A stretch of 64,000 bases of DNA, from positions 868,001-932,000 of the forward strand of contig NC_037320.1 in NCBI RefSeq assembly GCF_000143535.2, in the 5' to 3' direction. This stretch comes from Botrytis cinerea B05.10. Its lineage: Eukaryota; Ascomycota; Leotiomycetes; Helotiales; Sclerotiniaceae. Below, piece by piece: positions 42,939-64,000 of the stretch; position 1 is the first letter of the stretch; each line of letters opens with the position of its first letter. Below the pieces are notes generated by a model. That model saw only the letters and a program-made list of their open reading frames with translations. It did not search any database and was not told the origin of the DNA. Made by a program: the position numbers and the translations under genes.

Positions 42939-45900
42939 TCAACCTCTCCTCCTAAAGCCCCCAGGGAAGTCTTTACCAGACCAAGTCCTCCCAAGATATC
43001 CGAGATCCTGCAAGTATTTCACATTTAGTGCAACGGCGTGAGCCATGACCCGCTCCATCTCTTCCCAATCATTTGCCTCCGTCCATGCGGGAGTCGGACT
43101 ACTAAGAAGTCCCGGTCCCATCGTCTCAATGACATTTATAACAGGCCAACATGGATGCTCGTCACCAAATTCAGATAGAGATTCATTTAGCTTACCAAGC
43201 CAGACAGAATACGACTGGCTGGCTTGCAAAGGTGTATCAAGAGCAGCATTGACCGCCTCCCAAAAAATCCTTACCCGGATCCCATTCAGCATCTTTCTCT
43301 GCTTCCTGGTCACCGTGGGGTTAATCAAGGCATCTACAGTCATCTGAGCAACGTCCTCCGCCCTAGAAATATAAATCCACTCCTCGGGCTCGGGGTAGTA
43401 CTCGCCCACAAGCACACATGCGCTGATGAGTCTCCAGATCAGGTCATCGAGGTTAGCTGCATGACCGTGACTTGGGCCACCGATAATTAAAGCCGGATTC
43501 AGGATGCCCAGTCGACTCCCTGAGATTTCTTCTGGTTTTTGAAGTGCTGCCGTCGCTGCCACGACCTGCTCGGCGATCAGTTTTGATTGTCCGTAACCAT
43601 TTGTCTCGTGCAGCTTTTGCTGGAGTGTGGATGTGGAAAATACGCTATCTTCTTCGGATGGATCCCATTGCGCGCCTCCAGATATATACTCCAAGCGGGC
43701 TATGTGCGGATTCTGTGTCACTATTGAGACTAATTGTGTAGTAGAATCTACGTTGGCTGCTCGGAGCTCAGAGTAGCTGTACTGCCAGTGTACGAGAGCA
43801 CCATTGTGAATGATTCCAGTAATTTGAGAGTCATTAGTGGGTGTGTTACATCCTCTCAGCTGTTCCCATTGGGAGCTATTGAGGCCAAGTTTTGGTTTGG
43901 AGAGATCTCCTACCCATACTTTAATTTTGGAAGAATGTAGCGTCTCGTCCCACCAACCGGCTTTGATGGCCGCAGCGCGCACACGCTCGAGTCCAGTGGC
44001 TGCATCGTCTGCGCGAACAAGAAGGTAGGCTCTTTGAAGAGAAGAAGTATACAGAAGTCTTTGGAGAATTGCAGTTCCGACATATCCGGTCGCACCTGTC
44101 AAAAAGACATTTTGTATAGCGGAGGAAGGCGTGGGGCCAGACGCAAAATGGCATGATACTCCTCTCTGAAGGTCACGGAGCATTGGTTCAATATCTTCAA
44201 TCTCCATCATTTCTTCTTTGTTTGTATCTTTCCGGAACTGCAATTCTTTCACCGTGATGGCCAACTCAGTAAGCAGCATGGTGCGAGGAATTCGACTTAG
44301 TGGTAAGAGAATGCCAAAGGTTCGGTTGATCGCGCGGACAAACGAGACCATGCGAATTGAGTCTAGTCCTGCTGATACCGGAGCGAAATCAGGAGGATTT
44401 TGGGGGTCTTCAATAGACCCATCCGGCAGGAGAGGTTCCAGTAGCTCGCTAAGTTGTCGGGCTACAGTGTCAGAAGCTGGAATTGTAGCTGTTGCGATAC
44501 TTTTTCGCCATGGCGAGAGGTCTTGTTGTTCTATCCAATGTTGAAGTCCCTTGCGATCTGTCTTACCAGTCAGTGATAAAGGGAGACAGTCTGTCAAAAG
44601 ACATACGGCCGGTACCATGAATGGAGGTAGCATTACAGAAAGTTGCCTCAGGATGACGGCAGATACATCAGGGAGATTTAGTATCTTCATCTCTTGCAAG
44701 CTGTTAATGCGGCTGATTTTGCCATCTTGTATACCTTCTGACTGTGATATTAAATCTTTCTTCCACTGAGCAACTAGGACTAGCTCTGCACGACTATTGC
44801 TCTTAATTATCATCACAACAGCCTCCTCCAACCCTTCGATTTTTGTGGCAGTAGCTTCAATTTCTCCAAGCTCAATGCGCTGTCCATTCAATTTGACCTG
44901 ATGATCCTTGCGACCAACAAAAATCACAGAGCCGTCTGGCGCAAACCGAGCCAGATCTCCAGTCAAATAAATTCTTGACGCCCATGGCGGCATATCTTCT
45001 GAAAAAGTTTCATAAGGAGATATCTCAACAAATGCTCTTTTCTGGGAATCTGCATTATTCAGATACCCTCTAGTGACGATAGGGCCTTGAATCGCGAGTT
45101 CTCCTACAAGCCCCAGTGCCACCAACTGACTGCAATTATCAGGATGCACAATCATCATACGACAACCGACAGGAGAACCAAAATTCAAGGGATTCACTGA
45201 AGAATGTAGCGGTGGAGTTAGTGCCGCAGTGACACAACATTCGCTGGGACCATAACTATTGTGGAATTGAAAGTGAGGTATTTTGGTCCATCGCTTCAGC
45301 TGCGCCGCAGTTACAGCCTCTCCCCCCAGTCGCAACTCCTTCAAATTCGGCACCTCGAGTGGGTCCAAGATGTTAGCCACTGATGGAGTAATATCAATCA
45401 CATCCACCTGGAACCGAGAGATAACGCCTGCTAGTGCAGTGAGAACCTCTTCTTCCCGTGGAATACATACTACTCCTCCGACGAACAATGGTCCCAACAT
45501 GTCCGCAATTGATGGATCGAAACTGTATGTCGCAACTTGCAGCATACGACGATTACGCTGGAACATACCCTGCATGGCCTGTGCATGGAATGCAGTAGCA
45601 ACTTGGCGGTGTTCTGCTACCACAGCCTTTGGAACTCCCGTGGTGCCAGATGTGAAAACGGCATAGGCTGCATTATCCACCGCAACACCAGAGGAGAATG
45701 AGGCATCTCTATGGTTCGTGGACTGCTCCTGTAGCAGCTCTTTCTGCATCAGAGAATCTAGGCACAATATTTGATTGGCCAGACCAGACACTTTGGCTTG
45801 AAGAGCTTCAGAGCAGATAATTAGAGGAGCTTCTACCACAGAAATCATAGTCTGCATGCGAGCCACCGGTAGTCCACTATCCAACAGAACAAATGCACCT

Positions 45901-47771
45901 CCCGCCTGGAGAACTCCGAGTATGCTGATCAGAGTCCAGCAAGACTTCTCGTGAGCTATGGGCACCAGAATCTCTGGACCCACACCGGCAGCACGGAGAC
46001 GTTGAGCCAACTGCTTCGACACTAAAAGCAATTGACTGTATGAAAATTCACCATCCCATCCACAAACAGCAGGACTATCTTCCCACTTACCCATGACTGA
46101 ACGCTGCTCAATCAAAGTGTGAATGCATTCCTCGATCAAGTCAATAGGGGTAGAATGCCACTGCTGCATGATCTTAGTATCGGTTGCGGTCCACATGTTT
46201 AATTGTGACACAAGCGATGTTTGATTTGATGGCTGGAGGATCCAATTCAGCACATGAATGAATTTTTCGAGGAGTCTTTCTGCTTCCCATTGCCCCATGA
46301 TGGCTTTGCTGTAGGTTATTACATGGCGAATAGAATTTGATCCGAGGAAACATTCGAGTGATAGAGGATATTCCATGTAATCATCTCGACGTTCAGCCAA
46401 TATCTCATGGATAGGGCTGTCATCAACTTCGTCAGGCTGTATCACCAAGAGACTTTGAAAGCGGGAGGCTTGGGCTGGCCCGGAATCTCCCAAGGAGGAA
46501 ATGTGCGCCAAGCCAAGATGTTCGTGAGGTAGGCAATCCCCATATTGCGACTGTGTAGCTGATAAAGACTCTTTTGCAGTGGTGGCTTCGTTCAGTTGCA
46601 AACGTAAGGGGATAGTAGCAATCATTGGGCCAATTATACGGGCGACATCTTCACCCTCAATTGCGACGCTTCTTCCCATGCTTACCACCCCGAAAACAAC
46701 GTCGGAAACTTCATTGTAGCGCGCGAGAACAATACCCCATGCTGTCTGTATAGCCGTTGCGGCGGTGAACCCGAGATGATGCTGACTCTGGCTCCATTCA
46801 AAGTTCATCGAAACATGGGCCTGATCTCGCGGTTCGTCTGTTGTCAGCGCCCGAGGAAATGCCTGTCCCTCATATCCGTGCAAATGCTGGCACCAAAAGC
46901 CCATAGACTGACTCAAATCCATCTGCGCCAGATGTCCAGCAAAAGATGAGAAGGGAGGGTGAATAACTTCTGGATTGGTTGGATCTTGGTAGGCATCTAC
47001 CAACGCGTTAAAGATCAACCGCTGCGACCAAGCATCGTAAACAGCATGGTGGACACGCCATTGGAGTCGCCCTGGTTCTATCCAACAATAGAACAGAGGT
47101 TGTCCAAACGGGGGGTTGCTACTACCGTCTTTGACCTCTTTATTCATTGTGCCATTTTCTGAGTGAAGCACCACTTGATAGCAGGTTCCATCAGACATCT
47201 GTATAATCCGGCTGCGAAGTGCTTCGTTTGCCTCGACCACCCTTTTCCACGCAGCCTCTACTTGGGTAACTGGCCAGTCGCTCGGCAATTTAAAGCTTTG
47301 TTGGGCCCAATATAGGTCATGTTGCTGGGCTGTAAGGACTACGAGGCCCATCTGCATCGGCGTACAGGGAAATAGGCGCACTATCTCTGACTCAGAAATG
47401 TGACATTGTTGCACCGCTGAGGAGAGAACCTCGTGCTGCGAGGATTCAGGGATTTGAATGAATCGGGTAGGTACTGCGTCATCGGAGCGTTCGATTTGTT
47501 TCACTTCTAGAAGTGATTGCTCTAAAACAGCTCTAACCATCTCCGAGAATTGGGGATGACGAAGCATGAGATTCACGTTCAGGGCTATTCCAGCTTGCTG
47601 TACCAGCCGCGCTACTTTTAAAGCATCTATAGAGTCCCCACCTAGTGCAAAGAAGTTGGAGTCCGGTTCAACATCTTCATCGTCTAAACTGAGGATCTGG
47701 CACCAGGAACCTTTGATGAGGTCATGAGGAGACTGGATTTCAAGCACCGAAGTTTCGCCGATACTTCCCAT
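42939..47771 (-). CDS. NRPS-like enzyme, T–C–A–T–R (1610 aa)
   Basis: Single-exon non-ribosomal peptide synthetase with one adenylation domain. Order: a carrier domain (L-G-G-D-S, phosphopantetheine Ser47), a condensation domain (F-P-C-T-P-M-Q-M-G-L, then H-H-A-V-Y-D-A-W-S with H241/H242 and D246), and an adenylation domain (F-T-S-G-T-T-G-V-P-K from 706; Y-G-P-S-E; Y-L-T-G-D; G-R-K-D-H-Q-V-K). A second carrier follows (A-G-L-D-S, Ser1138), then a terminal thioester reductase (G-A-T-G-Y-V-G from about 1226, Y1393-x-x-x-K1397). The Tyr/Lys pair is kept, so NADPH-dependent release as aldehyde or alcohol is expected, not Dieckmann cyclisation. Asp follows the A4 phenylalanine (S-F-D-P-S), which fits an alpha-amino acid substrate. 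The first carrier has no adenylation domain before it, so its acyl load must arrive in trans. The gene is downstream of and parallel to the methyltransferase gene. Confidence 0.92.
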   Translation of the reverse strand: MGSIGETSVLEIQSPHDLIKGSWCQILSLDDEDVEPDSNFFALGGDSIDALKVARLVQQAGIALNVNLMLRHPQFSEMVRAVLEQSLLEVKQIERSDDAVPTRFIQIPESSQHEVLSSAVQQCHISESEIVRLFPCTPMQMGLVVLTAQQHDLYWAQQSFKLPSDWPVTQVEAAWKRVVEANEALRSRIIQMSDGTCYQVVLHSENGTMNKEVKDGSSNPPFGQPLFYCWIEPGRLQWRVHHAVYDAWSQRLIFNALVDAYQDPTNPEVIHPPFSSFAGHLAQMDLSQSMGFWCQHLHGYEGQAFPRALTTDEPRDQAHVSMNFEWSQSQHHLGFTAATAIQTAWGIVLARYNEVSDVVFGVVSMGRSVAIEGEDVARIIGPMIATIPLRLQLNEATTAKESLSATQSQYGDCLPHEHLGLAHISSLGDSGPAQASRFQSLLVIQPDEVDDSPIHEILAERRDDYMEYPLSLECFLGSNSIRHVITYSKAIMGQWEAERLLEKFIHVLNWILQPSNQTSLVSQLNMWTATDTKIMQQWHSTPIDLIEECIHTLIEQRSVMGKWEDSPAVCGWDGEFSYSQLLLVSKQLAQRLRAAGVGPEILVPIAHEKSCWTLISILGVLQAGGAFVLLDSGLPVARMQTMISVVEAPLIICSEALQAKVSGLANQILCLDSLMQKELLQEQSTNHRDASFSSGVAVDNAAYAVFTSGTTGVPKAVVAEHRQVATAFHAQAMQGMFQRNRRMLQVATYSFDPSIADMLGPLFVGGVVCIPREEEVLTALAGVISRFQVDVIDITPSVANILDPLEVPNLKELRLGGEAVTAAQLKRWTKIPHFQFHNSYGPSECCVTAALTPPLHSSVNPLNFGSPVGCRMMIVHPDNCSQLVALGLVGELAIQGPIVTRGYLNNADSQKRAFVEISPYETFSEDMPPWASRIYLTGDLARFAPDGSVIFVGRKDHQVKLNGQRIELGEIEATATKIEGLEEAVVMIIKSNSRAELVLVAQWKKDLISQSEGIQDGKISRINSLQEMKILNLPDVSAVILRQLSVMLPPFMVPAVCLLTDCLPLSLTGKTDRKGLQHWIEQQDLSPWRKSIATATIPASDTVARQLSELLEPLLPDGSIEDPQNPPDFAPVSAGLDSIRMVSFVRAINRTFGILLPLSRIPRTMLLTELAITVKELQFRKDTNKEEMMEIEDIEPMLRDLQRGVSCHFASGPTPSSAIQNVFLTGATGYVGTAILQRLLYTSSLQRAYLLVRADDAATGLERVRAAAIKAGWWDETLHSSKIKVWVGDLSKPKLGLNSSQWEQLRGCNTPTNDSQITGIIHNGALVHWQYSYSELRAANVDSTTQLVSIVTQNPHIARLEYISGGAQWDPSEEDSVFSTSTLQQKLHETNGYGQSKLIAEQVVAATAALQKPEEISGSRLGILNPALIIGGPSHGHAANLDDLIWRLISACVLVGEYYPEPEEWIYISRAEDVAQMTVDALINPTVTRKQRKMLNGIRVRIFWEAVNAALDTPLQASQSYSVWLGKLNESLSEFGDEHPCWPVINVIETMGPGLLSSPTPAWTEANDWEEMERVMAHAVALNVKYLQDLGYLGRTWSGKDFPGGFRRRG

Positions 47772-47847
47772 AGTGAATAACAGTATGCGGACTCAAAGGG
47801 AGTTGAAAAGGACATGTAATTTGTGCAAAAAGGTGAAGAGGGAGTGT

Positions 47848-47856
47848 TTATATATA
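47848..47856 (-). promoter_or_regulatory. TATA-like element of the NRPS gene
   Basis: On the minus strand the sequence TATATATAA lies about 80 bases before the NRPS start codon at 47771, a suitable distance for a TATA element with a short leader. Confidence 0.4.
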
Positions 47857-47979
47857 CTTTAAACCGCTCTGATCGGCAATTCATTTTACGTGTCGGGAAT
47901 TAATAAGCCATTTGTGCACTCCAGTGCTTATTGGCACGAAAACTTCATATTGAATTTATTGACATACAGCTGCAGAACC

Positions 47980-48825
47980 TCAAAAGCCCACTACGAATAA
48001 TGTATCTACCTCCTGGGGAATTATTTCCAGTACTCGTAAGCCAGCTCCAGCAACCAATTCTCTCAATTCTTTTTCGGTCCATACACGAAACAAAGCTGTG
48101 TCCAGATTCTTCTCGATTAATGTTTCATCCTTCCAGACCTCAATGTCTCTGACCACACGCCAAATATTTCCCTGAACGCCATTTTCTACCACCTTCTCCC
48201 GATAAACTACACCTGGAAACTCGACACTGGAATGTTCACTAGGAGGCAACGGATCTGTTATATCCTTATCCAGACCCAACTCTGGGTCTGCAATGAGTTT
48301 GCTCACAACCGAGATATGAGCTATTCCTGTTCTCGGAGTCAGGATATGAGCCACCTCTTCTAAAAACTTCTCAGGTTGACCTGGTTGATAGAAGTGCGAA
48401 ATGCTTCCGAAACCAACCGTGAGAAGGTCAACCTTTTTGCTTTGGAAGGTAGGAAGGGAGGACATATCCAGCGCTGAGCCCAGAAGCCAAATTATGCTTT
48501 GACAGCCAGCTTGAACAGGTAGTTTTGAATTAATTTTTTCCGCTCGCGCAATCATATGGGGTTCATTGTCGAGTCCAATGAACTCCACATTGGCGAGTGA
48601 AATACCAGGCTGATCTTTCGCATAGCTTGTGATTGCCTGAATCAGACGGCCAGTGCCAGTGCAAGCATCAAGCACAAGAATGTGTGAGGATGGTGCCTTA
48701 GAGACCATCTGGACGAGCGCTTTTGAGTTGTAGCTAGTGTCATTGCGTGTGCCTGTCCAAATGTCGTAGTATTCGGCCAGATAGGTCGAATCATAGCAAG
48801 TACTTTCCCGTACGGTGGAGCCCAT
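47980..48825 (-). CDS. class I SAM-dependent methyltransferase (281 aa)
   Basis: Rossmann-fold methyltransferase, probably acting on O, N or C of the cluster product. I place the start at the ATG at 48825 (M-G-S-T-V-R-E), because homology-like content begins there. The frame stays open 32 codons further upstream, but that segment is hydrophobic and unlike the family. Motif I is I-L-V-L-D-A-C-T-G-T-G-R (about 49–60), the acidic ribose-binding end of strand 2 is F-I-G-L-D-N-E-P, and the post-I region has L-L-T-V-G-F-G-S-I-S-H. The C-terminal half (W-R-V-V-R-D-I-E-V-W) suits small-molecule methyltransferases of fungal clusters. It has the same orientation as the NRPS gene 208 bases downstream. 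Acceptor unknown. Confidence 0.85.
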   Translation of the reverse strand: MGSTVRESTCYDSTYLAEYYDIWTGTRNDTSYNSKALVQMVSKAPSSHILVLDACTGTGRLIQAITSYAKDQPGISLANVEFIGLDNEPHMIARAEKINSKLPVQAGCQSIIWLLGSALDMSSLPTFQSKKVDLLTVGFGSISHFYQPGQPEKFLEEVAHILTPRTGIAHISVVSKLIADPELGLDKDITDPLPPSEHSSVEFPGVVYREKVVENGVQGNIWRVVRDIEVWKDETLIEKNLDTALFRVWTEKELRELVAGAGLRVLEIIPQEVDTLFVVGF

Positions 48826-50355: not shown

Positions 50356-51268
50356 ATGACTTCGTTTAACCTCCCCCCCAATATCTCACTCAAGGGAAAA
50401 GCCGCTATAGTTACTGGTGGTTCCCGTGGAATCGGAGCTGGCATTGCTCTTGAACTCGCTCAGCGCGGTGCCAACGTTGCCATTGTGTACCACTCCGATA
50501 AGAGTACCCCGGCAGCTCAGAAAGTCGCAAGCCAAATCCGTGAATTTGGCAGTGTGGCTTCTCTGGTGCAAGTTGACCTTGCGACACTGGACGCTGGACG
50601 TCGTGTTATTGACCAGGCTCTGCAAGGACTCAATGTCAAAAAAATTGATATTCTCGTCAACAATGCTGCGTCATATCCTCCATTCTTACCAGTTTTAGAA
50701 CTGGATGGGAAATTATTTGATCAGTAAGTATCTAGAATGATCCCTTTGAACATATCATTTCGTTTTTGGAACTAACAGTTCTATCAAGTGAATACATGGT
50801 CAACGTGCGCGCACCACATCTTCTTGTCCAGGCACTGCTCCCTCATATCGCTGAAAAGGATGGCCGAGTAATCAATATGTTTGTACTTCTGATCCTCTAT
50901 TTGATGACAAGCGACTTACAGAACGTTGCAGATCATCCGGGCTATCTCGCATAGGTATCAGTAATCTCTCCCTATACGCATCCACCAAAGCTGCCTTGGA
51001 ATGTCTGGGACGCCAGTGGGCGCATGAGCTCGCCTGTCCCTACAAGATGACGGTCAATAATTTGGCCTTGGGCGAGATTGACACTACTGTCGAGGGGGGA
51101 GAAATTCCTGATGAATTCCGAGATGCACAGGTCAATGGGCCGAGTGCGGCAAAACGTCACGGTAGCGTTGGAGAGGTGGCTAATGTTGTAGCCTTCCTAG
51201 CTAGCTCTGGCGCCAGTTGGATCAACGGAAATACAGTTTCAGTCAGTGGTGGTCATGTTTACATTTAA
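50356..51268 (+). CDS. short-chain dehydrogenase/reductase (264 aa, 3 exons)
   Basis: Classical SDR, NAD(P)H-dependent ketoreductase/alcohol dehydrogenase. Exons 50356–50723, 50789–50878 and 50932–51268 join in frame to 264 residues. The cofactor motif T-G-G-S-R-G-I-G is at residues 20–27 and N-N-A-A near 103. The catalytic serine lies in I-N-I-S-S-G-L-S, and Y-A-S-T-K supplies Tyr and Lys. V-S-V-S-G-G-H near the C-terminus is typical. The ATG at 50356 was chosen over in-frame non-ATG codons just upstream. It may reduce a ketone, or an aldehyde released by the NRPS reductase domain, which is inference from cluster context. Confidence 0.88.
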
Positions 51269-51934
51269 ACGAGATATGGTGGGAGGAATAGTCTAAGACA
51301 ACGGGATGACTGGGCTAAGCCCAATTGGGTGAGGCCATCTGTTTATTTTGTGGGTCTACTCGGCTCGGTGATGTTTTTGATGAGCTTCTTGTCAAAATCA
51401 AGCAAATCTCATATAGTTTAAAATTCAATGCCAATTCAATTTTACAACATGAGTTCATGAAAAACTTCAATATCGATAATTTCCTAGGTTAAACTTTGAT
51501 ATCATTTTTCAGTTATCATTTATTCAACATATCTACAAAGTTATATGATTAATTCTACTTTCCTTACGGAGTTTTGGTGACTTCGATTACATTGCCGGGC
51601 CCACACCAAAAAGCAAGACCGAGTACAGAAAACCAATTGTGATCAACGATAGGTACTTGAAGGGCTCATCTACCAACCGAATGCCCTGTCAGTTAACTAG
51701 AGCATGCCATTAATAGGTGGGTTATTCCATGTCTCCACTTCATAAGGATTTAAAAAAAGACGGCTGCAGGCGGGCGCCGCGGGGTTAAACTCTTTCTTGT
51801 TTAGTTCGCATAGGCAATTGGGATAGTGCATATTGATCATAGTTGCATATGCAATCTACATAGTGGATATTGGTCATCGAATTTACTACTCTCAAGACTA
51901 AAGAACACACAAAGAACACGTAGAGACAGTGATG
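51269..51934. other. convergent intergenic region in cluster
   Basis: Lies between the 3' ends of the dehydrogenase and the acyl-CoA ligase. It contains a TTGCATATGCAA palindrome at about 51842–51853. No gene or RNA is seen. Confidence 0.45.
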
Positions 51935-53593
51935 TCATTGGTTGGACTTCTGTTCCCAGGCTCGAAGTTCATGTCGCTGCACTTTCCCGGTGACAGTTCG
52001 AGGTAATTTAGCGCCACGTATGAATTCAATGACTCGGGGACATTTGTAGGGTGCACTGTTGTTCAGACAATGCTGGCGAAGTTCGACCTGCAGCTTTCGG
52101 GGGGCTTTAGTCTCATATTCCTGGTTTAAGACAACATAGGCCTTAATAATAGACCCACGTTCTTCATCTGGAATCCCAACCACCGCTGATTCTAGTACCC
52201 CCGGATGGCTCTGCAAAACCGCTTCAACTTCACTGGGTCCAATGCGATACCCCGAGCAATTAATAATGTCATCTTTCCGGGCCTTGAACCAGAAGTAGCC
52301 CTCCTCATCCTGGTAAGCTCGATCTCCTGTTAGATAATATTCCTTACCCGCTGCACTTCGTACGATGGGCCGAGTAACAACACCTTCTTCATTCATGTAG
52401 CCATTGAAGACGTCATATATAGAATCCTTGCAGTCAGAAACACATACTCCGATGGCACCTTCCTCTCCAATCACTACCGGCTCCGCGTCATCGCTTAAGA
52501 TCTCCAGAGGAATACCTGGGAGAGGTCGCCCCATGGAGCCTGGCCGCTGGCTCTCTATGGTTTCAGTGCAGAGGAAAACTGTCTCTGTCAAACCATAGCC
52601 ATTCAAAATTGTTGCCCCCCGCGTCATCTCTCCCCAGGCCTTGATCACAGTGCTTTCGATTGTCTCGCCAGCACTGATGCAAATTCTGATCATCTGTGGA
52701 GGATGTGAAGCAGCAAACTCCCGACTTTGAGGCGTGACTAATTGCCTATAGGCTGTGGGGGTCGCACAAAAGTTGGTGACAGGATATTCATGCATGATTC
52801 GAAGGGTATGAATGGGGTCGAACATCTGGCTGGGCGTTTCGTCAACCAGTAGTGCAGCCCCGTGATTCCATGCGGCAAATACAGCCCATGAGCCTTTTAC
52901 CCAGCCGACCTCTGAGAGACTCCAGAACAAGCTACCGGGAGAAAGCTGGCACCAGTGTTCTCCGGCGATTTTGCTACTCAGAGCTAGAGAAATTTGGTTG
53001 TGCTGAGCGGTTTTGGGTTCCCCAGTCGTGCCGGATGTGAAATAAAGGACGGCAGGGGAGTTTGCCACTGAATTGATCGTAGTGTCCACTAAATTTGCCT
53101 GACCTGTTGCCACCAAGACCGAGTAGTCGATTGCATCAGTGATCCTATCATCATATCCGATCTGAATCATGTGCTGTAGCGTAGCGAGACGGGGTTTGAT
53201 AGGCAAAACCTTTTCCACCTGGACAAGGTCGCCGATGAATGCTTTGGCATGAACTTTCTGAATGCGATGTTCCAGATCTAAGCCAGAGAGTCCACTAGCG
53301 ACAGGGCAGATAATAATTCCACTGCGGAGGCAGGCACATAGAATCTCATACCAGTCTCTGCACCGTGCTGCTGAAATCACTATGGTGTCACCTGGTCGAA
53401 TCCCTAGCTCATAAAAGGCCGATGCAACTTGTATAGAGCGCTCACTCAGCTCACGATAAGATACATCTTTGCGCCTTTTCTGTGTGACTAGAACCAATGC
53501 GGGAGAGTCTCCACGGCGTTGACTCCATTGATCAACAACTTCGCGCACGAAGTTGAATTGAGGGGGCTTGAGCTCTGAGTGGAGTTGGGTCAT
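51935..53593 (-). CDS. acyl-CoA synthetase, medium-chain-like (552 aa)
   Basis: ANL-superfamily adenylating enzyme most like medium-chain acyl-CoA synthetases (ACSM). It activates a carboxylic acid to acyl-AMP and then transfers it to CoA or another thiol. Single exon. The phosphate-binding loop T-S-G-T-T-G-E-P-K is near residue 190, and N-G-Y-G-L-T-E-T near 335. Y-L-T-G-D-R-A near 420 is followed by the hinge and R-K-D-D-I-I-N-C-S-G-Y-R-I-G-P-S-E-V-E. The C-terminal catalytic lysine is in R-T-V-T-G-K-V-Q-R. All core motifs are intact. Divergent from the hydrolase gene 737 bases away. In this cluster it is the best candidate to activate a released polyketide acid and load it on the orphan first carrier of the NRPS (inference). 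Confidence 0.9.
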   Translation of the reverse strand: MTQLHSELKPPQFNFVREVVDQWSQRRGDSPALVLVTQKRRKDVSYRELSERSIQVASAFYELGIRPGDTIVISAARCRDWYEILCACLRSGIIICPVASGLSGLDLEHRIQKVHAKAFIGDLVQVEKVLPIKPRLATLQHMIQIGYDDRITDAIDYSVLVATGQANLVDTTINSVANSPAVLYFTSGTTGEPKTAQHNQISLALSSKIAGEHWCQLSPGSLFWSLSEVGWVKGSWAVFAAWNHGAALLVDETPSQMFDPIHTLRIMHEYPVTNFCATPTAYRQLVTPQSREFAASHPPQMIRICISAGETIESTVIKAWGEMTRGATILNGYGLTETVFLCTETIESQRPGSMGRPLPGIPLEILSDDAEPVVIGEEGAIGVCVSDCKDSIYDVFNGYMNEEGVVTRPIVRSAAGKEYYLTGDRAYQDEEGYFWFKARKDDIINCSGYRIGPSEVEAVLQSHPGVLESAVVGIPDEERGSIIKAYVVLNQEYETKAPRKLQVELRQHCLNNSAPYKCPRVIEFIRGAKLPRTVTGKVQRHELRAWEQKSNQ

Positions 53594-54330
53594 TTTTCCC
53601 TCGCTTCAATAATAGAGAGACGAAAAGACAATTGTGAGTTAGATGATAATGAGTTCTACTCTGGGTTTTACTGCATCTCCGAGGCTATAAATAATGAAAC
53701 TGAGTGGCTAGCTGAAGGAGAGTTTCCGTCCCTCAAGCTAAGTTGCAGGATCTGCACTTGCTGATCTAGATCGCTCATTGCTGCTGTCTATTACGGCTGA
53801 AAACAGATCTTGGACTTGCGGTGTGTTACTCATGATATATTATCTGCAAGTGATGTCGTTACAAGTCAAGGCAAGCTTTTGCAGGTTGTAGACTCTGCCA
53901 CGCGTAATGGATGCTAGTCAGGACTATAGTTTGAGCGCGGGAAGTTGATTTACACATGTATACTGCATGCGAATGTTACAGCGCGAAAATATCCTATGGT
54001 GAATACTCATTGTAACACATGAAAGTGTTTTCGGGTTGTGAAATACTAGTGTTATGTAGTGTATGGAAAAAGTATCATCTGAATTAATTAATTAATCTAT
54101 TTTCCATAGAAAGTAAAATTAAATGTAGTATCGATTGTATGTTATTTATAATTATGAATTCCATACATCAGGTTTCGGAGCAGGTACTATCGTGGGTGTC
54201 AACCAGAACTCCTAAGTATTTATCAGAAACAAACTTTAATAAAAGACAGTGAGGTATATAGAAAGGCCTCTTGTAAACGAAATAATCCCAAAGCCATTCA
54301 GACACACCCAGATCGATTCTTTTCATCACT
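53594..54330. other. divergent promoter region, ligase / hydrolase
   Basis: Shared upstream region of two divergent cluster genes. A short AT-rich block lies at about 54060–54160. The frame at 53579–53764 has no recognisable content. No transcription-factor gene is present here. Confidence 0.45.
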
Positions 54331-55171
54331 ATGCGATTCCTATGTTTGCACGGCATTGGTACTGGGAAGGCCATTCTCGAAGCCCAATTGTTCATGATCA
54401 GACGTCAACTTCCTGGTCATGAATTCGTCTTCTTTCAGGGAGACGTAGAGACTCCGCCCGCGCCAGGTCAGGAACCCCAAACAGGTCATGTATGTACCAT
54501 AAAACTGACAGCCACAAATAGGAGTCGAAATGTTCTTTCCGGGGCCATATTATTCCTACTTTACTGTTCCCTCACCAGATGCCGTACTAGCAGCGATTGA
54601 CCGCTTGGAAGACTTTATCGACTTGCAAGGTCCCTTTGATGGAATTCTTGGATTCTCGCAAGGAGCAGCACTTGCAGCCTCATACCTTCTACACGACTCT
54701 ACACGCCAGCATCCTAGAGATGACTTTCGATGTGCCGTGTTTTTCTGCGCAATTCAATGCTGGGATCTAGACAGCCCAGGATTTACACTATCATATGACG
54801 GAAAGTGTCGATCACTTGGAGGACCATCAAGCCCCCCAAAAGTGGTGTGCTCCACAGACGATATTACGAGCGTATTTGGAGCTGCCTATCATCCACTACT
54901 GAAGGGCAATTGGGATTCAGAAACGGAGCTACTGTGGCCCTTTGGAAGGTCTCCTTTGCGTTGGAGTCCCTTGGGTCGTATCGATATTCCGTCCTTGCAC
55001 GTCATTGGCTCCAAAGATATATACAGGGGTGAATCCACTGTTCTGACAACGTTCTGCACAGCGGCCAATGCTCATGTTGTGGAGACAAGTGGCGGACATG
55101 AGATTTCCCGTGACCCCGCTATGGTGCGCAATGTGTCAAATTTTCTGCAGACTGCCCCCAGCCTGGTGTAA
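54331..55171 (+). CDS. FSH1-type serine hydrolase (261 aa, 2 exons)
   Basis: Alpha/beta hydrolase of the FSH1 family. Members in fungal polyketide clusters (the LovG/AMT4/DltC-region type) release or edit acyl chains from HR-PKS carrier domains. Exons 54331–54466 and 54522–55171 join in frame. The start is M-R-F-L-C-L-H-G, the usual family beginning. The nucleophile elbow is G-F-S-Q-G (Ser near residue 89), and the acid/base pair comes from H-V-I-G-S-K-D and the C-terminal S-G-G-H-E-I. The segment F-F-P-G-P-Y-Y-S-Y-F corresponds to the lid/substrate region of FSH1 proteins. Located between the ligase and the PKS. It probably hydrolyses the polyketide thioester, which is inference from family and position. 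Confidence 0.87.
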
Positions 55172-56684
55172 GAGATTTTGAGAGATTTGCCTTGGGGTCT
55201 TGGTTTTCGATGCAGTAGCCACGCAATCCGGTATCCCCGAGATGTGATGCATCTGTGTTCCTGTTTCTTCAGACTGGCATACGGGTACTCGCGTAGTAAT
55301 AGTGTATGCAACTCCGGACGAGATGCATAGACCACAAGATAGTGAACTGCACGAGAATTAATTTGGTCTTTATAGTGGAGGAATTGCATACTTTCAGCCA
55401 GCACGAATATCTGGTACGAGTCAGATCATACCTCTGTTGGTTAAGATCTTAATGAGTGGAAGTGTAAACAATAGTAATTATCATCAACATGTAACGTGCG
55501 TGTGTTGTTTGTGGTTACTCTATGCAGTAAAAACTTCCAATTATATCATTTCATGTGTTAATACCTGAAACGTCATTAGTATTCTTCCAAGTAAGACTTG
55601 TGGCCCCGGCTCATTGTTCACTACCCTATTTCGTGACAAACCCCCGCAAAAAAATATTGTTTTATTAAATATACAAACTGAAATATTCAAGAATTTAGTC
55701 GGTAATTAGAGTCTTTGCTTGAAAATGATAACTTGATTTCTGATAACAAAAATAATAGAAATTCGTTACTTTTTTTCTTTCTATTATTGTAATTAACACA
55801 CAAGTCTTCGAGGTTGAAATATTTTAAAAATTACAACTTGTAATACTTTGCTCATGTAAATTAATCGATTTTCCAAGGATTTAAGAATGCTACGATTCTA
55901 ATAAGAAAATAGTAAAACTTATTTAATTCATTTCTATCCTCATATAAATGATTATAACTCATTTACTTCTGATTTTACATATTCCTAATAAGTTGTAATA
56001 TTAAATACAAAATTTATCAACGTATAGGTTTTCCGATGTGCATTGTAGTGTGAGCTAACCCCCACAGAGCCCGAAACCTATTAAAGAGGGGAACATAGCC
56101 TAAAGCTGAGGGGAGGGGTTGCACGTGTTCGTCTTCTTTTAACCCCTTCTCCTGCAGTAGCGAAGGAGTCTAGCTAATTTAAGAAGGACATTTGATTGGT
56201 CAAATCAATCAAAATCGGATTCCTCCGCTGTATCGGCCGACACAGTCGGAGAAAAGCGAGCCAATCGCGATCATTCTCAATACTATCTGTTAAGAATGCT
56301 TGAGCTTCTGGCACTAGAAAACGCAATGGCAATGGGTTGTCAATTTGAATTTAGTATAGTGCGTATTTTTCTCAAAGCTATGTACAATGGAGTTGACTAT
56401 GTCAGTCGATTTGATTATCTAATACACTCTTGTATCTCGTACCTCAATACTAGCATAGAGTTTTGGACCAATAATTCTAGTTCGTCATGTTACATACTTG
56501 TCGAGGTATCAATACATGAGATTATGCCATTCGGGGTTTTCACCGTAAACCATTTTCGAGATGGGATTATCCCATACTGTGTTTTCTAATTCACCGGGCA
56601 GGTTCCAACCATATCATATAACTTCTTTACAGACATTCCTGCATTTGTTCTCATCAATTGATTTCAACATCTTTCCATCTCAGT
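55172..56684. other. intergenic region upstream of PKS, with AT-rich block
   Basis: Contains an AT-rich block at about 55650–56030, likely mutated repeat DNA, and a GC-normal stretch from about 56090 to the PKS start that should hold its promoter. The 97-codon frame at 56296–56589 has no recognisable content. Confidence 0.45.
56233..56240. promoter_or_regulatory. TCGGCCGA palindrome upstream of the PKS gene
   Basis: A perfect 8-base CGG/CCG palindrome 445 bases before the PKS start codon. A further GTCGGAG follows 13 bases downstream. Inverted CGG/CCG pairs are typical binding sites of Zn2Cys6 regulators of fungal clusters, but a single occurrence by eye is weak evidence. Confidence 0.25.
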
Positions 56685-59600
56685 ATGAATGAACCCATTG
56701 CCATTATCGGTCGTGGTTGTCGTCTAGCCGGAGGTTGTCAATCTCCCTCTGAACTTTGGAATTTTCTTCAAACTCCTTACGATGTTTCTCAGGAGTTCCC
56801 CCCGGATCGAAACTCTGCTTCACGCCATAGTACCTCCACACGGGGATATTTTCTCTCGCAGGATGTACGAGAGTTTGATGCGTCGTTCTTTAGTCTCAGT
56901 CCATTGGAAGCACAGGCAATGGATCCCCAGCACCGGCTGTTGCTTGAAACAGTGTACGAAGCTCTAGAGGAAGCGGGAATTCCTGCTGAGACACTGCGTG
57001 GCTCTGATACCGCGGTGTACACGGGAGTAATGTTTCACGACTATCTCTCACTCAGCAGCCAGGACCATATGGCAATTCCCAAATATCATATCACCGGCAC
57101 TGCTCCAAATAAAGCGTCGAATCGAATCTCCTACTTTTTCGACTGGCATGGGCCTTCAGTCACCGTTGATACTGCTTGCTCATCTAGTCTTGTAGCTCTA
57201 GACCATGCAGTGCAACAATTACGAAGTGGTTCGTCAACTCTTGCTGTGGCAGCAGGGGCCAACCTGCTCCTTGATGGTCGCCCATTTATCGGGTTTAACA
57301 ACATGGGAATGCTTTCCCCTACAGGGAGCTGCAAGATGTGGGATACTGAAGCTGATGGCTATGCCAGGGGCGAAGGAATCCTTGCTATGCTGTTAAAACC
57401 GCTCCGACTTGCTCTGGCAGATGGTGATAACATACAATGTGTTATTCGAGAGACTGGCGTCAACCATAACGGACGCACCAGTGGAATTACCTTGCCAAGC
57501 GCATCTGCTCAGACAAGTCTCATTCGGGATGTTTATCATCGAGCAGGTTTAGATCCCACAAACCCTTCTGATCGACCTCAATATATTGAGGCACACGGCA
57601 CAGGCACTCAAGCGGGGGATCCTTTGGAAGCCGAAGCACTAGCCGCGGCCTTTTCACTCACATCATCACAACCCGATGAGGCTCATATGTTAGTTGGCAG
57701 CATAAAAACTGTCATCGGTCATACTGAAGGAGCAGCCGGACTAGCTGGGGTATTGAAAGCATCTCTGGCCATACAGCACGGGATTATCCCGCCAAACCTT
57801 GGATTTCAGCAATTGAATAAAAAAGTAGCACCATATTGTACCAACATGGATGTGGTTACCAGCGTGCAGCCATGGCCCGCGATGGCATCCAATACTCCCC
57901 GTCGAGTAAGCATCAATAGCTTTGGTTTCGGGGGAGCCAATGCCCATGTCATCCTGGAGTCCGTGCCACTTCCAGCTAAAAATGGATGTCAAGAGGCATC
58001 TCTGTCACCAAGAAGCGACTCTGTGCTCCCATATGTGTTTTCTGCTGCCTCCGAACAATCCTTAATTTCAATGCTTAAACGATATGAAAATTATCTCCAA
58101 GAAAACCCATCCATTAATCCTAACGAGTTAACTACCACACTGGCATCCCATCGATCTCTTCTCCCTGTTCGTGTTCGATTTCCCGCTTCTTCCATCGAGT
58201 CTCTTCAGCAAGCAATCAACAGTTCATTTGAGTCTGGAGTGATTGGATATCAATCCCCGCTAAAAGAATCGAAAATTCTCGGCATCTTCACCGGTCAAGG
58301 TGCGCAGTGGGCCCAGATGGGAGTTGGGCTTTTAGCTGCTCATCCCAGCTTAATTTCCTTTCTTGATGATTTAGACAAGGCTTTACAGTCACTTCCGGAA
58401 GGCGATCGCCCGACATGGAGCCTTCGAGAGGAGTTGGAGCGGCCATCCGAGGAATCACGAATTGATACTCCTGAAATATGTCAGCCTATATGCACAGCAA
58501 TCCAGCTAATGCTCGGTCACCTTTTACAGAAATCTTGTGGTATCTCATTCTCTGCAGTCGTTGGCCATTCATCTGGGGAAATTGCCGCAGCATACTTTGC
58601 AGGATTTTTACGCTCAGCTGACGCCATTCGCATTGCGTTTTACCGAGGTCTGCATGTAGCTCGATTCATATCATCATGTAATCAGGAGGGCAGGATGCTG
58701 GCTGCAGGCCTGTCCCAGGATGCAGCGGAGGATTTGCTAGCAGCTACCGAATTCAAGGGCCGATTGTCTCTTGCGGCCGTTAATTCTCCATCTAGTGTAA
58801 CTCTCTCTGGTGATGCAGATGCCATAGAGGAAGCTCAAACTCAGCTAGTCAGCCGTAAAATCTTTAATCGGTTGCTCAATGTTCAAACCGCATATCACTC
58901 ACATCACATGTCAAAGTGCTCCTCGGCATATCTAGCTTCGCTCGAAGAATGTCAAATTGAAGTATTGCGCCCCTCTAGCGACGCCCCATGTTGGTACTCA
59001 AGTGTCCAATCAGGGGAATTAATCTCTTCTGAGGGCGCGGACAAACTGGGTGCGTCCTACTGGGTTGAAAACTTGGTAAATCCAGTCATGTTCCATCATG
59101 CCATTCACAATGCGGTATCCCTCCTACCCGATATCAATTTCTGTCTAGAAGTTGGCCCTCATCCCGCTTTGAAGGGTCCCACCATGCAAACGATAACAAC
59201 TGTGCGGAAGAATCCCCCTCCATACTCTGGCACTCTCAACCGATCCAAGACTGATCTAGTGGCATTTTCGGAGTGCGTCGGGGACTTGTGGGTATATTTG
59301 GGAAGTGCGAGAGTTCCACGCTTCGATGCTTTAGAACACGCAAAGCCATCACTCGTTGGCCTCCCAACTTATCCCTGGGACCATCGGCATAGCTTCTGGC
59401 TGCCACCACCTTCATTAAGCTCGATGAAAGGAAATTGGAATCAGCAGCCGTCTCAAAATCGAGTGAATAGCCTGCTAGGATACCAGGTTGGCGATTGTGA
59501 AATCGGCACAATGTGTCGTTGGTCCAATGATCTGAGAATCGACCAATTGGATTGGCTGAAAGGTCACACACTCGAAGGTCAAATCATTTTTCCCGCCACG

Positions 59601-62600
59601 GGCTACATTACATTGGCCTTGGAGGCTTGTAGACAGTTCGCTGCCGGGCGATCCATCCAGAGTATTACTCTGAAAGACGTCAAGTTTCTTAAAGCACTTC
59701 GTATTGATGAAGCATCAGGGGCCAACATCACTGTCACTATGGATGTGTTCCAAGACGAGGAGTCTGTCATTCAGGCAAAGTTAAATGTGAACATTCCTCC
59801 TACGGAAGACGATGGTAAATTCTTCGCTGCTGCCACTATGGACATTATGCTCGAGCTAGGCTCCCCGGTTGATGATCTCTTGCCTGGTAGAGCTGCTTTC
59901 TCCTCTTTCATGACGGAGCTTGACCACACAAAAGTATATGACCATCTAGCCAAGTTGGGCTATGAATACACAGGAGATTTTCAACGAGTTCACAGCCTCC
60001 GTCGATCTCTTGGACAGGCAGTCGCGGAGATTGGCTGGGATCACACGGCAGACGATGACTATGTGCTTCACCCAGCATTGCTAGACAATGCCATTCAGGT
60101 TCTATTCTCTGCCTTCACAGATCATGAGGATGAGAGCATGTGGAATCTTTACATGCCAGTATCTGTTGAGCAGCTGACCTTGAACTTTTCCCTCTCCTAC
60201 CCTGGGCGTGACGGGCAATTCGGCGTAGACAGCTATCTACGCAAGGCCGACAGCAGCGGTATTTGTGGGGATGTCACCCTTTTCAACTTCTCTGGGCAAG
60301 GAATCATCCAGATGGAAGGACTTAACACCATGCCAGTTTCGCCTGCTACCGAGAACAACGACCTAATACTATTTTCTGAGACAGTATGGGGAGTTGCCGA
60401 GCCTAATGGCGAGCTAGCCCTAGGTAATCGCCGGGCTTCGCCTGAGATGCTAAGAAAGACTCTCGAATGGGAGAGGGTTTCACTGTATTATCTTCGACAG
60501 ATTGGCCACATGTTTATCGATCAGAAAACAGGCGAGAGAATTCAAACAATTGAAATTGAACCTCATCATGGGGCCTTCCTAGACTACTGCTCATGGCTCG
60601 AAGATACTGTGCGCGTGGGGAAGCACCCTTATGCCTCACCATGTTGGCTATCTGATACAGATAAAGAAATTGAGCAAATTTGTCGTCAATATTCCGCTGA
60701 GGACATCGATTTCCGATTGATAAAAATGGCTTTCGAGGTTCTCCCTCCAGTCATCAGAAAAGATACCACTATGCTTCAAAGCTTCATGGCGGATGATGCT
60801 TTAAGCGACTGGTACCAGAATAGCATGGTCTGCGCCCCAGCTGAGGAACCTCTAGGAGAAATCATCTCCCAGATTTCGCATCGCCATCGAGGTTTAAATG
60901 TACTTGAGATTGGAGCGGGCACGGGTTGTGCTACAAGATCAGTACTTCCAGCATTAGGATCGTCTCTCGCTCGCTACACATTTACTGATGTATCAGTTGG
61001 TTTCTTCGAGAAGTCAGCACAGCAATTCTCCACATATGCCGATCGTATGGATTTCAAAACCTTCGATCTAGACCAAGATCCCATGGATCAAGGGTTCATT
61101 GAAGGTACCTATGATCTAGTTGTTGCATACGCAGTTCTACATGTAGCATCATCTCTTAGTGATGCTTTAAGGCGAGTCCGACGCCTACTGAAGCCTGGTG
61201 GCTTTCTTGTACTTGCCGAGGTCTTGGGAGATGGACCAATGGCTTTGGGCCTGATTTTTGGAGGATTTACTGGCTGGTGGGCAGGTCGAGAGGAAGGAAG
61301 ACGATATTCGCCAACCGTTTCACTGGAGGCATGGCAGGAGGTCCTAGCCAATACCGGCTTCTCCGGCGTTGACACACACACTCCGCTCAAAGATCCTATC
61401 ACATGGCCTATCAGTGTCATGGTCTCTCAAGCAGTTGACAATCAGGTTCAATTGCTCCGTGAGCCAGTCTCGTCAGCGGAGCTGGTACTGGAGGAATTGA
61501 TCATCGTCACCGATCTCAACTTTCCATCCCATGATACCGTGCAACTCCTGAAGAAATTATTAGCTCCTCATACCAGACAACTTACTCACTTCAATTCCCT
61601 TGCTGAGATAGATGGCACGCCTTTGCCAGCTAAAGCCACCGTGCTTAATATGGCTCATCTGGAGATTCAACCATCCGAGAAGGCTTGGCGAGGGTTGCAG
61701 AACCTTTTAGGCACGGCTTCACATATGCTTTGGGTCACGAATGATTATTCAGGTGGGAATGCCTCATCTGGGTTGTCCATTGGTTTGGCTCGGTCTTTGC
61801 TACATGAAATGCCTCATTTGCGTCTGCAGATGGTTGATCTGAGTCAGAAAGCAGAGCCTGACACAGTGGCATCATTAATCGCAAATAATCTTCTGCGCCT
61901 GGCAAAAGATCATGCTGATGATGGGTTCTGGACCACGGAGCCTGAAATGGCTATCGATGCAATGAATAGGGTCCTGGTTCCACGTCTACAACCCCTGAGA
62001 ACGGCCAACCACCGGTTGAACAGCTGGAGAAGGAAGATTATCACCCCAGTTCATGTGGATAAAGAAGAAACTGAATTGAAATGGCAAAATGATAACTTCA
62101 TGCTGGTTGCGAAGGGTGCTCTACAATCTTATCAAGGCAGTTCTCGTGTCATACGCACCACACGATCGGTACTAGCAGCTCCATCTCCCCATAATGTGCC
62201 AGTATATCTTAACCAAGGCGTGGACATCCTTTCGGGAGAAGTGATCATCGCTGCTTCCGACACCTTGTCATCTATTTTGACTGTTCCAACATCTCTTTCA
62301 ATTCCTGTTGATCTTGAGACCTCCACCCACCCTCAATACCTAGATCTTCTGACTACCGACCTTTTAATCAAGACCGTTGTCGATAAAATCACCACCGGGA
62401 ATCGTGTTTTGCTTTATGCCGGTGATTTTGCTGCTGCGGCTTACGAAAAGTTCTGGTCATATCACTTGCATGCAAAACAACTTCAGGTACACTATTTGAC
62501 TGGAACGAAGGAGTTAGCCACCACCGCATTATGGCAATACTGTAATCCACAAGCTCCAAAACGACTTATTACATCAATTCTGCCCAAAGACATTGACGTT

Positions 62601-64000
62601 TTCATCAATCTCTCAGAAAGAAATTCTGCAGCCAAAATACTAGACTCTCTGCCTCTCCGTTGTCAGCAATTCACATTTTCTTCGGCGATTGCGGCTACAT
62701 CTTCAATCCCTTCTCTTCAGCCAATACAAGACATGACTGCGCTGCTAACAAGCGCTCATGCTGCTGTTCAAAAGTATATCGAATTAGATTTTACCGTCCA
62801 GTTTCCGGAGTATAGCGTCGCGGAGCTACTCAACCACAAGCCGAAGGAGCTCTCCAGCATCCCAATCGTAAATTGGTCGTGTCCGACCCCGCTTCCCGCC
62901 AATTATCAATCGGTTGATACATCACAGCATATTCTGCGCCCCGATCGGACATACTGGCTTGTAGGATTGACAGGAGATCTGGGCCAGTCTCTCTGCGATT
63001 GGATGGTTGTGCGTGGTGCTCGAACAATTGTTCTTACCAGTCGACAAGTTCGCATGCCCACTGATTGGGTTCACAGACATCGGGACAACGGAGTCAATAT
63101 TGTTCCTCTAGCAGGGTATGTAAATTCGCCGCTTCTTTCTAAAATTTGATACAAGAGCTAACTGTACTAGTGATGTCACCAAGGCGGCCTCTTTGAAAGA
63201 GATACACACCATCATCACAAACGAACATCCCCCTCTTGATGGCATAGCCAGCGGTGCAATGGTGATGCGCGAAAATTTCTTCCAAAAGACGACTGCGGAA
63301 GAATTCAGTCAGGTCGTCGAGCCCAAGGTGCGGGGTCTACAGAACCTAGATGATCTAGTTGGCGACCAATCGTTGCTATTTTTTATTGCCTTCTCTTCAG
63401 TTCTGGCAACACTAGGTAATCTCGGGCAAAGTGCCTACACCGCAGCCAACGTAGCATCCGAGGCACTAATTGTGCGCCGTCGACAGCGCAAACTGGCGGG
63501 CTCAGTGATCCAGATCTCCCGCATGACAGATGTTGGATATGTGAAACGCCAACGATCAACATACTCAACACAGGAAATGGAACGATTGGACGCTTACTGT
63601 CTGCCCATGGGTGAGCGACAGCTACACGCCTTATTCGCTGAAGGAATTTTGGCCGGTCAGCTGCAGCAGTGCAACTCCACGCCTGTTATCACAGCAGGAA
63701 TTCCCAGAATCTCAATTGATAAAGCAGGGAATGCGGCTTGGATGAAGAATATTCGGTTCTCGAGCTATTGGGAGCAGGAACCATTGCACCAGGATGATCG
63801 AGTTGAAAAGAAAGCAGGCAATGTTCCGATTCGAATTCAATTATCAGAGTCTAAATCTACTGATGAAGCAGAAGTGATCGTCCGGGGTAAGTGGGCACCG
63901 TTTCTTCTGATTAGCAATTGTACTGATTCTTTCCTAGATGGTGTCACCACCAAAATCCGCACATGTCTCCATCTCCCATCTGATCAACCTGTCGCGGAGC
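56685..64000 (+). CDS. highly reducing polyketide synthase, KS–AT–DH–MT–KR–(ACP…), 3' end beyond window
   Basis: Iterative type I HR-PKS. Exons 56685–63115, 63171–63886 and 63938 onwards join in frame. The KS starts at N-E-P-I-A-I-I-G, with Cys165 in D-T-A-C-S-S-S, His304 in E-A-H-G-T-G-T and His346 in G-H-T-E-G-A-A-G. The AT has F-T-G-Q-G-A-Q-W and Ser629 in G-H-S-S-G-E. The DH has His961 in G-H-T-L-E-G … P and an Asp in H-P-A-L-L-D-N-A-I-Q. The C-methyltransferase has L-E-I-G-A-G-T-G-C (about 1405). The segment between MT and KR is too short for an active enoylreductase and shows no ER nucleotide motif. The KR has G-L-T-G-D-L-G (about 2094), with Ser/Tyr in F-S-S-V … S-A-Y-T-A-A-N. The last visible residues look like the beginning of the carrier domain. 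KS and KR resemble those of PKS–NRPS hybrids, so further domains may follow beyond the edge. Confidence 0.93.

What the first reader, a model, noticed from the sequence alone, without database searches (positions are those of the whole stretch)
42939..64000. Possible split polyketide–amino acid assembly line: PKS, hydrolase, acyl ligase and T–C–A–T–R NRPS
Seen: an HR-PKS, an FSH1 hydrolase, an acyl-CoA ligase and an NRPS whose first domain is a carrier with no adenylation domain before it, all within 21 kb. Known: fungal lipopeptide pathways such as emericellamide and fellutamide use an acyl ligase to load an acyl chain onto an NRPS carrier in trans. Inference: here the PKS chain is released by the hydrolase, activated by the ligase, loaded on Ser47 of the NRPS, condensed with one amino acid and released reductively. 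The BVMO, SDR, methyltransferase and 2OG oxygenase would then tailor it. I do not recall a described cluster with exactly this set.
Basis: partly seen in the sequence, partly recalled or inferred. Interest (0 to 1): 0.85.

Follow-up and report, generated by a model that had tools for sequence, protein, structure and literature searches.

The report
Split polyketide–amino acid gene cluster
A gray-mould fungus carries a compact gene set that probably makes a polyketide acid on one enzyme, reactivates it, and joins it to a single amino acid on a second enzyme; the product is still unknown.

Summary
The window is Botrytis cinerea DNA; by position and order the two large genes are the catalogued Bcnrps8 and Bcpks4, listed with unknown product in a 2023 review. 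The NRPS is T-C-A-T-R, 1610 aa, with no room for an upstream adenylation domain. Catalytic motifs checked are intact in NRPS (8 of 8 sequences) and PKS (5 of 5).

In the listings, NRPS, ligase and PKS have close relatives only in Botrytis and Aspergillus section Nigri, then identity drops sharply. New here: 80 of the next 115 PKS relatives are PKS-NRPS-hybrid-sized, yet the NRPS condensation domain sits among ordinary fungal NRPSs (joint clade with hybrids rejected, p 0.002; adenylation domain inconclusive). So it is probably not a simply split hybrid; the link looks rebuilt in trans.

Best model (inferred): FSH1 hydrolase frees the polyketide acid, the ACSM-type ligase activates it, Ser47 receives it, one amino acid is added, the R domain releases an aldehyde or alcohol. 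Works like emericellamide/W493 B trans-loading, in single-module, reductively released form. Trans-loading itself is untested.

The parts
38995..39891 (+). PhyH-type Fe(II)/2-oxoglutarate oxygenase (298 aa); possible tailoring gene
   Evidence: Pfam PhyH 113.5 bits; best solved relative EasH 5m0t, 243.1 bits; HRD and distal CHGGG present; length
40297..41901 (+). Baeyer-Villiger monooxygenase (534 aa); possible tailoring gene
   Evidence: Best solved relative 6y48 Baeyer-Villiger monooxygenase, 544.6 bits; FxGxxxHxxxWP motif present (motif recalled); length
42939..47771 (-). Bcnrps8: T-C-A-T-R NRPS, 1610 aa; N-terminal carrier Ser47 with no adenylation domain before it
   Evidence: Pfam; motifs kept in 8 of 8 sequences; Botrytis 88-98%, Aspergillus sect. 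Nigri 62%
47980..48825 (-). SAM methyltransferase (281 aa), directly upstream of the NRPS, same strand
   Evidence: Pfam Methyltransf_25; start and length; in two Nigri genomes the gene model runs MT into NRPS (P0007, P0008)
50356..51268 (+). Short-chain dehydrogenase/reductase, at least two exons (exact intron ends not settled)
   Evidence: Pfam adh_short / adh_short_C2 on both pieces; ATG
51935..53593 (-). Stand-alone acyl-CoA/acyl-AMP ligase, ACSM type (552 aa); proposed to activate the polyketide acid
   Evidence: Pfam; best solved relative human ACSM2A, 304.6 bits; Botrytis 91-98%, Nigri 73-75%, then 44% or less
54331..54484 (+). FSH1-family serine hydrolase, exon 1; proposed to release the PKS chain
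   Evidence: Gene model; weak, sub-cut-off Pfam FSH1 match to this part
54522..55171 (+). FSH1-family serine hydrolase, exon 2 (GFSQG nucleophile)
   Evidence: Pfam FSH1 70.4 bits; gene model 267 aa
56685..63115 (+). Bcpks4 exon 1: KS-AT-DH-MT-(no ER match)-start of KR
   Evidence: Pfam; motifs kept in 5 of 5 sequences
63171..64000 (+). Bcpks4 exon 2: rest of KR and ACP; continues past the window to 64164 (L009:2164), where it stops
   Evidence: L009 reading frame and spliced translation of 2474 aa with a single terminal stop

Best explanation
A two-enzyme polyketide-amino acid assembly line bridged by an acyl ligase. Bcpks4 builds a C-methylated, unsaturated chain (no ER). The FSH1 hydrolase frees it as a carboxylic acid. 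The ACSM-type ligase activates the acid as acyl-AMP or acyl-CoA and loads Ser47 of Bcnrps8. The C domain couples it to one amino acid chosen by the A domain, and the R domain releases an N-acyl amino aldehyde (or alcohol). Methyltransferase, SDR and perhaps BVMO and the 2OG oxygenase tailor it. Shown: gene content, domain order, intact active-site motifs, the same phyletic pattern of NRPS, ligase and PKS in the listings, and ancestry of the C domain apart from PKS-NRPS hybrids. Inferred: every chemical step. A free beta-keto acid would be expected to decarboxylate, so a hydrolysis-reactivation route points to a fully processed enoyl acid and not to a fusarin- or tetramate-like product (inference).
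For: Stand-alone PKS ending after its ACP. N-terminal carrier without A domain and no room for one. GGDSI of T1 and HHxxxD of C kept in 8 of 8 sequences, including A. ruber at 41%. In lists of the best 120, ligase, NRPS and PKS show the same pattern, Botrytis plus Aspergillus sect. Nigri (section membership recalled), then a sharp drop: ligase 73% to 44% or less, PKS 63% to 40% or less, NRPS 62% to 41% (A. ruber) to 35% or less. Linkage from equal contig lengths: NRPS and PKS in A. eucalypticola (P0007/P0243) and B. elliptica (P0002/P0242), NRPS and ligase in A. violaceofuscus (P0008/P0124) and B. cinerea (P0003/P0121). Ligase, hydrolase or thioesterase, and a first T domain are what emericellamide, pneumocandin and W493 B are described to use, each in part (passages).
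Against: No result shows the ligase acting on Ser47 or the hydrolase on the PKS. The A. ruber relative keeps T-C-A-T-R, but no ligase or PKS named A. ruber is among the 120 listed hits of either search, so T1 may not always need this ligase. The A. niger NRPS and PKS entries have different contig lengths (P0006 889194, P0244 864145), so linkage there is not shown. No match for the acyltransferase that emericellamide uses. The A-domain test does not exclude grouping with hybrids (p 0.34). No shared promoter motif and no transcription-factor domain in the stretches scanned.
Confidence: 0.6

Rival explanations
1. Direct transfer: the PKS carrier hands its chain to the NRPS C domain or T1 without a free acid, as may happen with the separately encoded PKS and NRPS of acurin A; the hydrolase is only an editing enzyme and the ligase acts elsewhere.
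For: Acurin A is a published case of individually translated PKS and NRPS (title seen in a reference list; details recalled). T1 is kept in A. ruber without a close ligase in the listing.
Against: The C domain is not of the hybrid lineage that accepts chains from PKS carriers. A T1 between PKS carrier and C would be superfluous. The ligase is co-conserved.
Confidence: 0.15
2. The ligase makes an unusual starter acyl-CoA for the PKS, or loads a different small acid on T1; the PKS product joins later or not at all.
For: The ligase's best solved relative is human ACSM2A, a type known for short, medium and aromatic acids (recalled).
Against: HR-PKSs usually start from acetyl-CoA (recalled); an FSH1 hydrolase beside a PKS without its own release domain fits a free-acid product.
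Confidence: 0.15
3. Two independent neighbouring pathways: PKS with FSH1, and NRPS with its tailoring genes.
For: Each half has the domains needed to work alone, apart from a donor for T1.
Against: Ligase and MT lie between them, and equal contig lengths put NRPS and PKS on one contig in A. eucalypticola and B. elliptica.
Confidence: 0.1

Closest known systems
Emericellamide pathway (easA-easD, Aspergillus nidulans)
   Same: Separate HR-PKS, acyl-CoA ligase and an NRPS whose first T domain is proposed to take the polyketide (PMC3901194, passages)
   Different: EasA has five modules and 18 domains; uses an acyltransferase EasC; its PKS has ER. Here one module, reductive end, FSH1 hydrolase, no acyltransferase match, no ER
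W493 B cluster (PKS40, NRPS32, ligase, thioesterase; Fusarium)
   Same: PKS + NRPS + predicted acyl-CoA ligase + thioesterase (PMC10967133, passage)
   Different: Hexapeptide; there the passage has T1 of NRPS32 accepting threonine from A1, so the front-end carrier differs. Here one amino acid and an R domain
Pneumocandin (GLNRPS4/GLPKS4, Glarea)
   Same: First module T-C-A-T-C; first T suggested to accept the polyketide; acyl-CoA ligase in cluster (PMC3672099, passages)
   Different: Multi-module cyclic hexapeptide and an acyltransferase; here one amino acid, reductive release
Acurin A (Aspergillus aculeatus)
   Same: Individually translated PKS and NRPS (title of the paper seen; content recalled)
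   Different: Recalled as a recent fission of a fusarin-type hybrid; here the C domain is not hybrid-type, and a T1 and ligase are present
Fungal PKS-NRPS hybrids
   Same: After its orthologues PKS4's best hits, at 40% or less, include many of them (80 of 115 by length over 3300 aa); same PKS set KS-AT-DH-MT-KR-ACP
   Different: Not one polypeptide; C domain falls outside their clade

Membership tests
Ligase-bridged (trans-loaded) fungal PKS/NRPS systems | PKS and NRPS are separate proteins | tested here: met
   PKS stops after ACP at 64164; NRPS on the other strand
Ligase-bridged (trans-loaded) fungal PKS/NRPS systems | NRPS begins with a carrier domain without an A domain | tested here: met
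   T1 at ORF residues 25-89; 208 bp between NRPS ATG and the next gene; Ser47 position kept in 8 of 8
Ligase-bridged (trans-loaded) fungal PKS/NRPS systems | Stand-alone acyl ligase in the cluster | tested here: met
   51935-53593, ACSM type, same phyletic pattern
Ligase-bridged (trans-loaded) fungal PKS/NRPS systems | Ligase charges the first carrier | not testable with these tools
   Needs an in vitro assay
Emericellamide pathway proper | Acyltransferase (EasC-like) shuttling the chain | tested here: not met
   No acyltransferase family in the ORFs scanned or in the six-frame stretches scanned between 32.5 and 56.7 kb; small gaps and the rest of the genome were not scanned
Emericellamide pathway proper | Multi-module NRPS | tested here: not met
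   One C and one A domain
Fungal PKS-NRPS hybrids | PKS and C-A-T-R in one polypeptide | tested here: not met
Fungal PKS-NRPS hybrids (or a recent fission of one) | C domain inside the hybrid clade | tested here: not met
   10 hybrid C domains form one clade (SH-aLRT 100) apart from the 7 NRPS8 rows; joint clade rejected on 35 rows, p 0.002
Fungal PKS-NRPS hybrids (or a recent fission of one) | A domain inside the hybrid clade | tested here: inconclusive
   Falls with fungal NRPSs in the 78-row tree, but joint clade not rejected on 39 rows, p 0.34
Reductively releasing NRPS | R domain with SDR-type Ser/Thr-Tyr-Lys | tested here: met
   SGG and YGQSK in 8 of 8 (role of the motif recalled); activity not testable here

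The most novel reading that the evidence does not exclude
The one-amino-acid PKS-NRPS format has arisen a second time in fungi, not by splitting a hybrid but by wiring a hybrid-type PKS to an unrelated single-module NRPS through a ligase and a front-end carrier, and this cluster is shared between Botrytis and Aspergillus section Nigri, perhaps by horizontal transfer; the product would be a new class of N-(polyenoyl) amino aldehydes.
Probability: 0.35. Interest if true: 0.65.

Novelty: new variant of a known kind. Interest (0 to 1): 0.45.

Why it matters
Hybrid PKS-NRPS lines are hard to re-engineer because PKS and NRPS must match at a fixed joint (recalled). A natural single-module system that appears to use a free acid, a ligase and a front-end carrier would be a small model for swapping polyketide and amino-acid parts. 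It would also give a chemical handle on an unexplained, transcribed gene cluster of a major crop pathogen whose NRPS and PKS have 62-63% relatives in Aspergillus niger.

Tried and rejected
Recent split of a PKS-NRPS hybrid: rejected for the C domain; for the A domain unsupported but not rejected.

PKS running on into a C-A-T-R module past the window edge: rejected.

Hidden A domain before T1: no room, 208 bp.

Cluster transcription factor: six-frame Pfam scans of 32500-38900, 41900-42940, 53600-56700 and, on + to 51300 and on - to 50300, from 48900 gave no regulator; short or unmodelled ones could be missed, and 39892-40296 and 51300-51935 were not scanned. Shared promoter motif: 8- to 10-mers in six intergenic stretches. 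Two 8-mers occur in 4 of the 6 (shuffles: mean 0.96, at most 5), none in 5 or 6. Zinc-cluster-like CGG/CCG pairs occur in the stretches before PKS and NRPS only.

Amino acid prediction: the specificity code reads DPADRGSVT in 6 of 6 NRPS8 rows of Botrytis and Nigri and DPAERGSVT in A. ruber; none of the other 71 rows has the same letters (column positions set from recalled GrsA motifs). A polar side chain is only a guess from recall.

Product or characterised twin: one search covered the gene names and found 6 papers; I read passages in all 6, and none names a product; supplements were not available. The other eight paper searches were by theme, and I read passages in a few of their hits only. 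Closed-access papers and MIBiG were not searchable. One search (MalG) found nothing, so MalG's aldehyde release is recalled.

HGT between Botrytis and Nigri: not tested, no fungal DNA or housekeeping yardstick available.
Full report
What it is. The window is G000:C11:868001-932000 of a 42.6 Mb, 18-contig genome. The NRPS is 98% identical to a Botrytis cinerea protein. A 2023 review lists Bcnrps8 as Bcin11g02650 and Bcpks4 as Bcin11g02700, under unknown peptides and unknown polyketides (PMC9920419, table passage). That fits two core genes five loci apart, as in the window (NRPS, MT, SDR, ligase, FSH1, PKS); B. elliptica shows the same spacing in its locus names, BELL_0094g00110 for the NRPS and 00160 for the PKS. 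The match of window genes to the Botrytis names is by position, order and family, not by a sequence record that bears the name. PMC11173184 lists Bcin11g02680 among undescribed paralogues in its AMP-binding-domain tables (passages); by its number this should be the ligase.

Observation. The four claimed genes are present with the claimed domains. The PKS is 2474 aa in two exons, with a 55-bp intron inside the KR, and it stops directly after its ACP, 164 bp past the window. The next gene is a TPR protein read by eye from the ORF list. No ER was called in this PKS, and the precomputed domains of P0241-P0245 show no alcohol-dehydrogenase-type ER accession (which accessions mark ER is recalled). 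No ER-type domain was found in the other stretches scanned. The NRPS is T-C-A-T-R; T2 was not called by Pfam, but its serine motif is kept.

Intactness. Nine NRPS motifs were read in 8 sequences: B. cinerea, P0002, P0004, P0005, P0006, P0007, P0008 and P0009. P0001 (98% copy) and P0003 (a shortened gene model) were left out. Ten PKS motifs were read in 5 sequences: B. cinerea, P0242-P0245 (P0241, a 98% copy, left out). Five ligase motifs were read in 6 close sequences (P0121 and P0123 left out) and 2 distant ones; the P-loop, GDR and terminal lysine motifs are kept. The residues taken as catalytic are kept throughout, with small changes around them. What these motifs mean is family knowledge, recalled.

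Conservation. The listings show the best 120 hits, clusters standing for proteins at 90% identity. Ligase: 7 proteins at 73-98% (3 Botrytis, 4 Aspergillus of sect. Nigri), then 44% or less. PKS: 5 at 63-98% (2 Botrytis, 3 Nigri), then 40% or less. NRPS: 5 Botrytis at 88-98%, 3 Nigri at 62%, A. ruber at 41%, then 35% or less, mostly over part of the length. Section membership is recalled. Linkage is inferred from equal longest-contig lengths (A. eucalypticola and B. elliptica for NRPS and PKS; A. violaceofuscus and B. cinerea for NRPS and ligase); the A. niger entries have unequal lengths and show nothing either way. In two Nigri models MT and NRPS are written as one protein (P0007, P0008), whereas A. 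niger P0006 keeps the MGSIGET stretch that starts the Botrytis protein; I read the fusion as an annotation artefact that still shows MT next to NRPS on the same strand.

Ancestry. In a tree of 75 C domains the 7 NRPS8 rows form one clade inside the fungal NRPS group, while the 10 hybrid C domains form another clade (both support 100). Forcing NRPS8 and hybrids together on a reduced set of 35 rows is rejected (p 0.002); for A domains (39 rows) it is not (p 0.34), although the A tree of 78 rows also places NRPS8 with fungal NRPSs. In a KS tree of 85 rows PKS4 and its orthologues are sister (98) to 70 rows, 35 hybrid-sized and 35 shorter. Those rows came from PKS4's own homology search, in which 80 of the 115 hits after the orthologues are longer than 3300 aa; I thinned these 80 to 35. 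Seven other KSs of this genome lie outside (100); that of the C14 PKS joins the base on a long branch. The KSs of this genome's hybrids were in frames too short to enter. The PKS thus goes with the hybrid-type PKSs while the NRPS C domain does not. Trees were quick searches (LG+G4, SH-aLRT only).

How it most likely works. See Best explanation. Published precedent: EasD ligase, EasC and the first T of EasA (PMC3901194, passages); the T-C-A-T-C first module of GLNRPS4 with a ligase (PMC3672099, passages); W493 B with ligase and thioesterase (PMC10967133, passage), though there T1 is described as taking threonine. Differences here: one amino acid, reductive end, FSH1 hydrolase, no acyltransferase match. 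The ligase's best solved relative is human ACSM2A. The FSH1 protein has only a marginal PDB match, 1ycd (E 0.008).

Expression and regulation, from passages only: Bcnrps8 is down in planta at 24 h in a tomato study that compares with liquid culture (PMC10031073) and down in the transition from stipes (PMC5821092). Bcpks4 is one of three exceptions among unexpressed secondary-metabolite genes in an ABA fermentation (PMC11742572). An introduction cites PacC as controlling Bcpks4, Bcpks5 and Bcpks11 in B. cinerea (PMC12387645). PMC10971195 lists a nine-gene NRPS+PKS cluster, no. 28, present in B. cinerea and B. fabae and marked for infected leaves in the former; that this is the same cluster is my inference from the order of its table. 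The two leaf statements do not agree, and I did not resolve this.

Verdict. A real, apparently intact, conserved cluster, already catalogued as genes but without product. The layout is a new variant of ligase-bridged PKS/NRPS systems. The most interesting point is that it does not look like a split hybrid. The mechanism is plausible and testable, not shown.

Noticed in passing
own genome C14:584719-601671 (loci L026, L053, L006, L056, L042): A second PKS next to a large NRPS in this genome (by position perhaps Bcpks11/Bcnrps9, part of a cluster that PMC10971195 says was probably obtained from Fusarium graminearum). Another separate PKS/NRPS pair worth comparing.
   Followed up: no
P0007, P0008 (Aspergillus eucalypticola, A. 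violaceofuscus): Database proteins with the methyltransferase fused to the N-terminus of the NRPS; probably gene-model artefacts, but they show adjacency.
   Followed up: partly
P0009 (Aspergillus ruber): A 41% T-C-A-T-R relative with nearly the same specificity code but no ligase or PKS named A. ruber in the listings: it may be fed by another donor.
   Followed up: no
window 56216-56250 (PKS promoter stretch 55172-56684): Several CGG/CCG pairs of zinc-cluster type lie close together upstream of the PKS, though no regulator gene was found in the cluster.
   Followed up: no
window 34990-36216 (+): MFS transporter, the nearest transporter-like gene to the cluster that was seen; membership unknown.
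   Followed up: partly
window 4517-5059 and 6047-6583 (+): Two small neighbouring ORFs that look, by eye, like diverged copies of one gene of unknown function.
   Followed up: no
window 24001-26000: Strong GC skew (0.33) over a G-rich, repetitive ORF (24483-25616).
   Followed up: no
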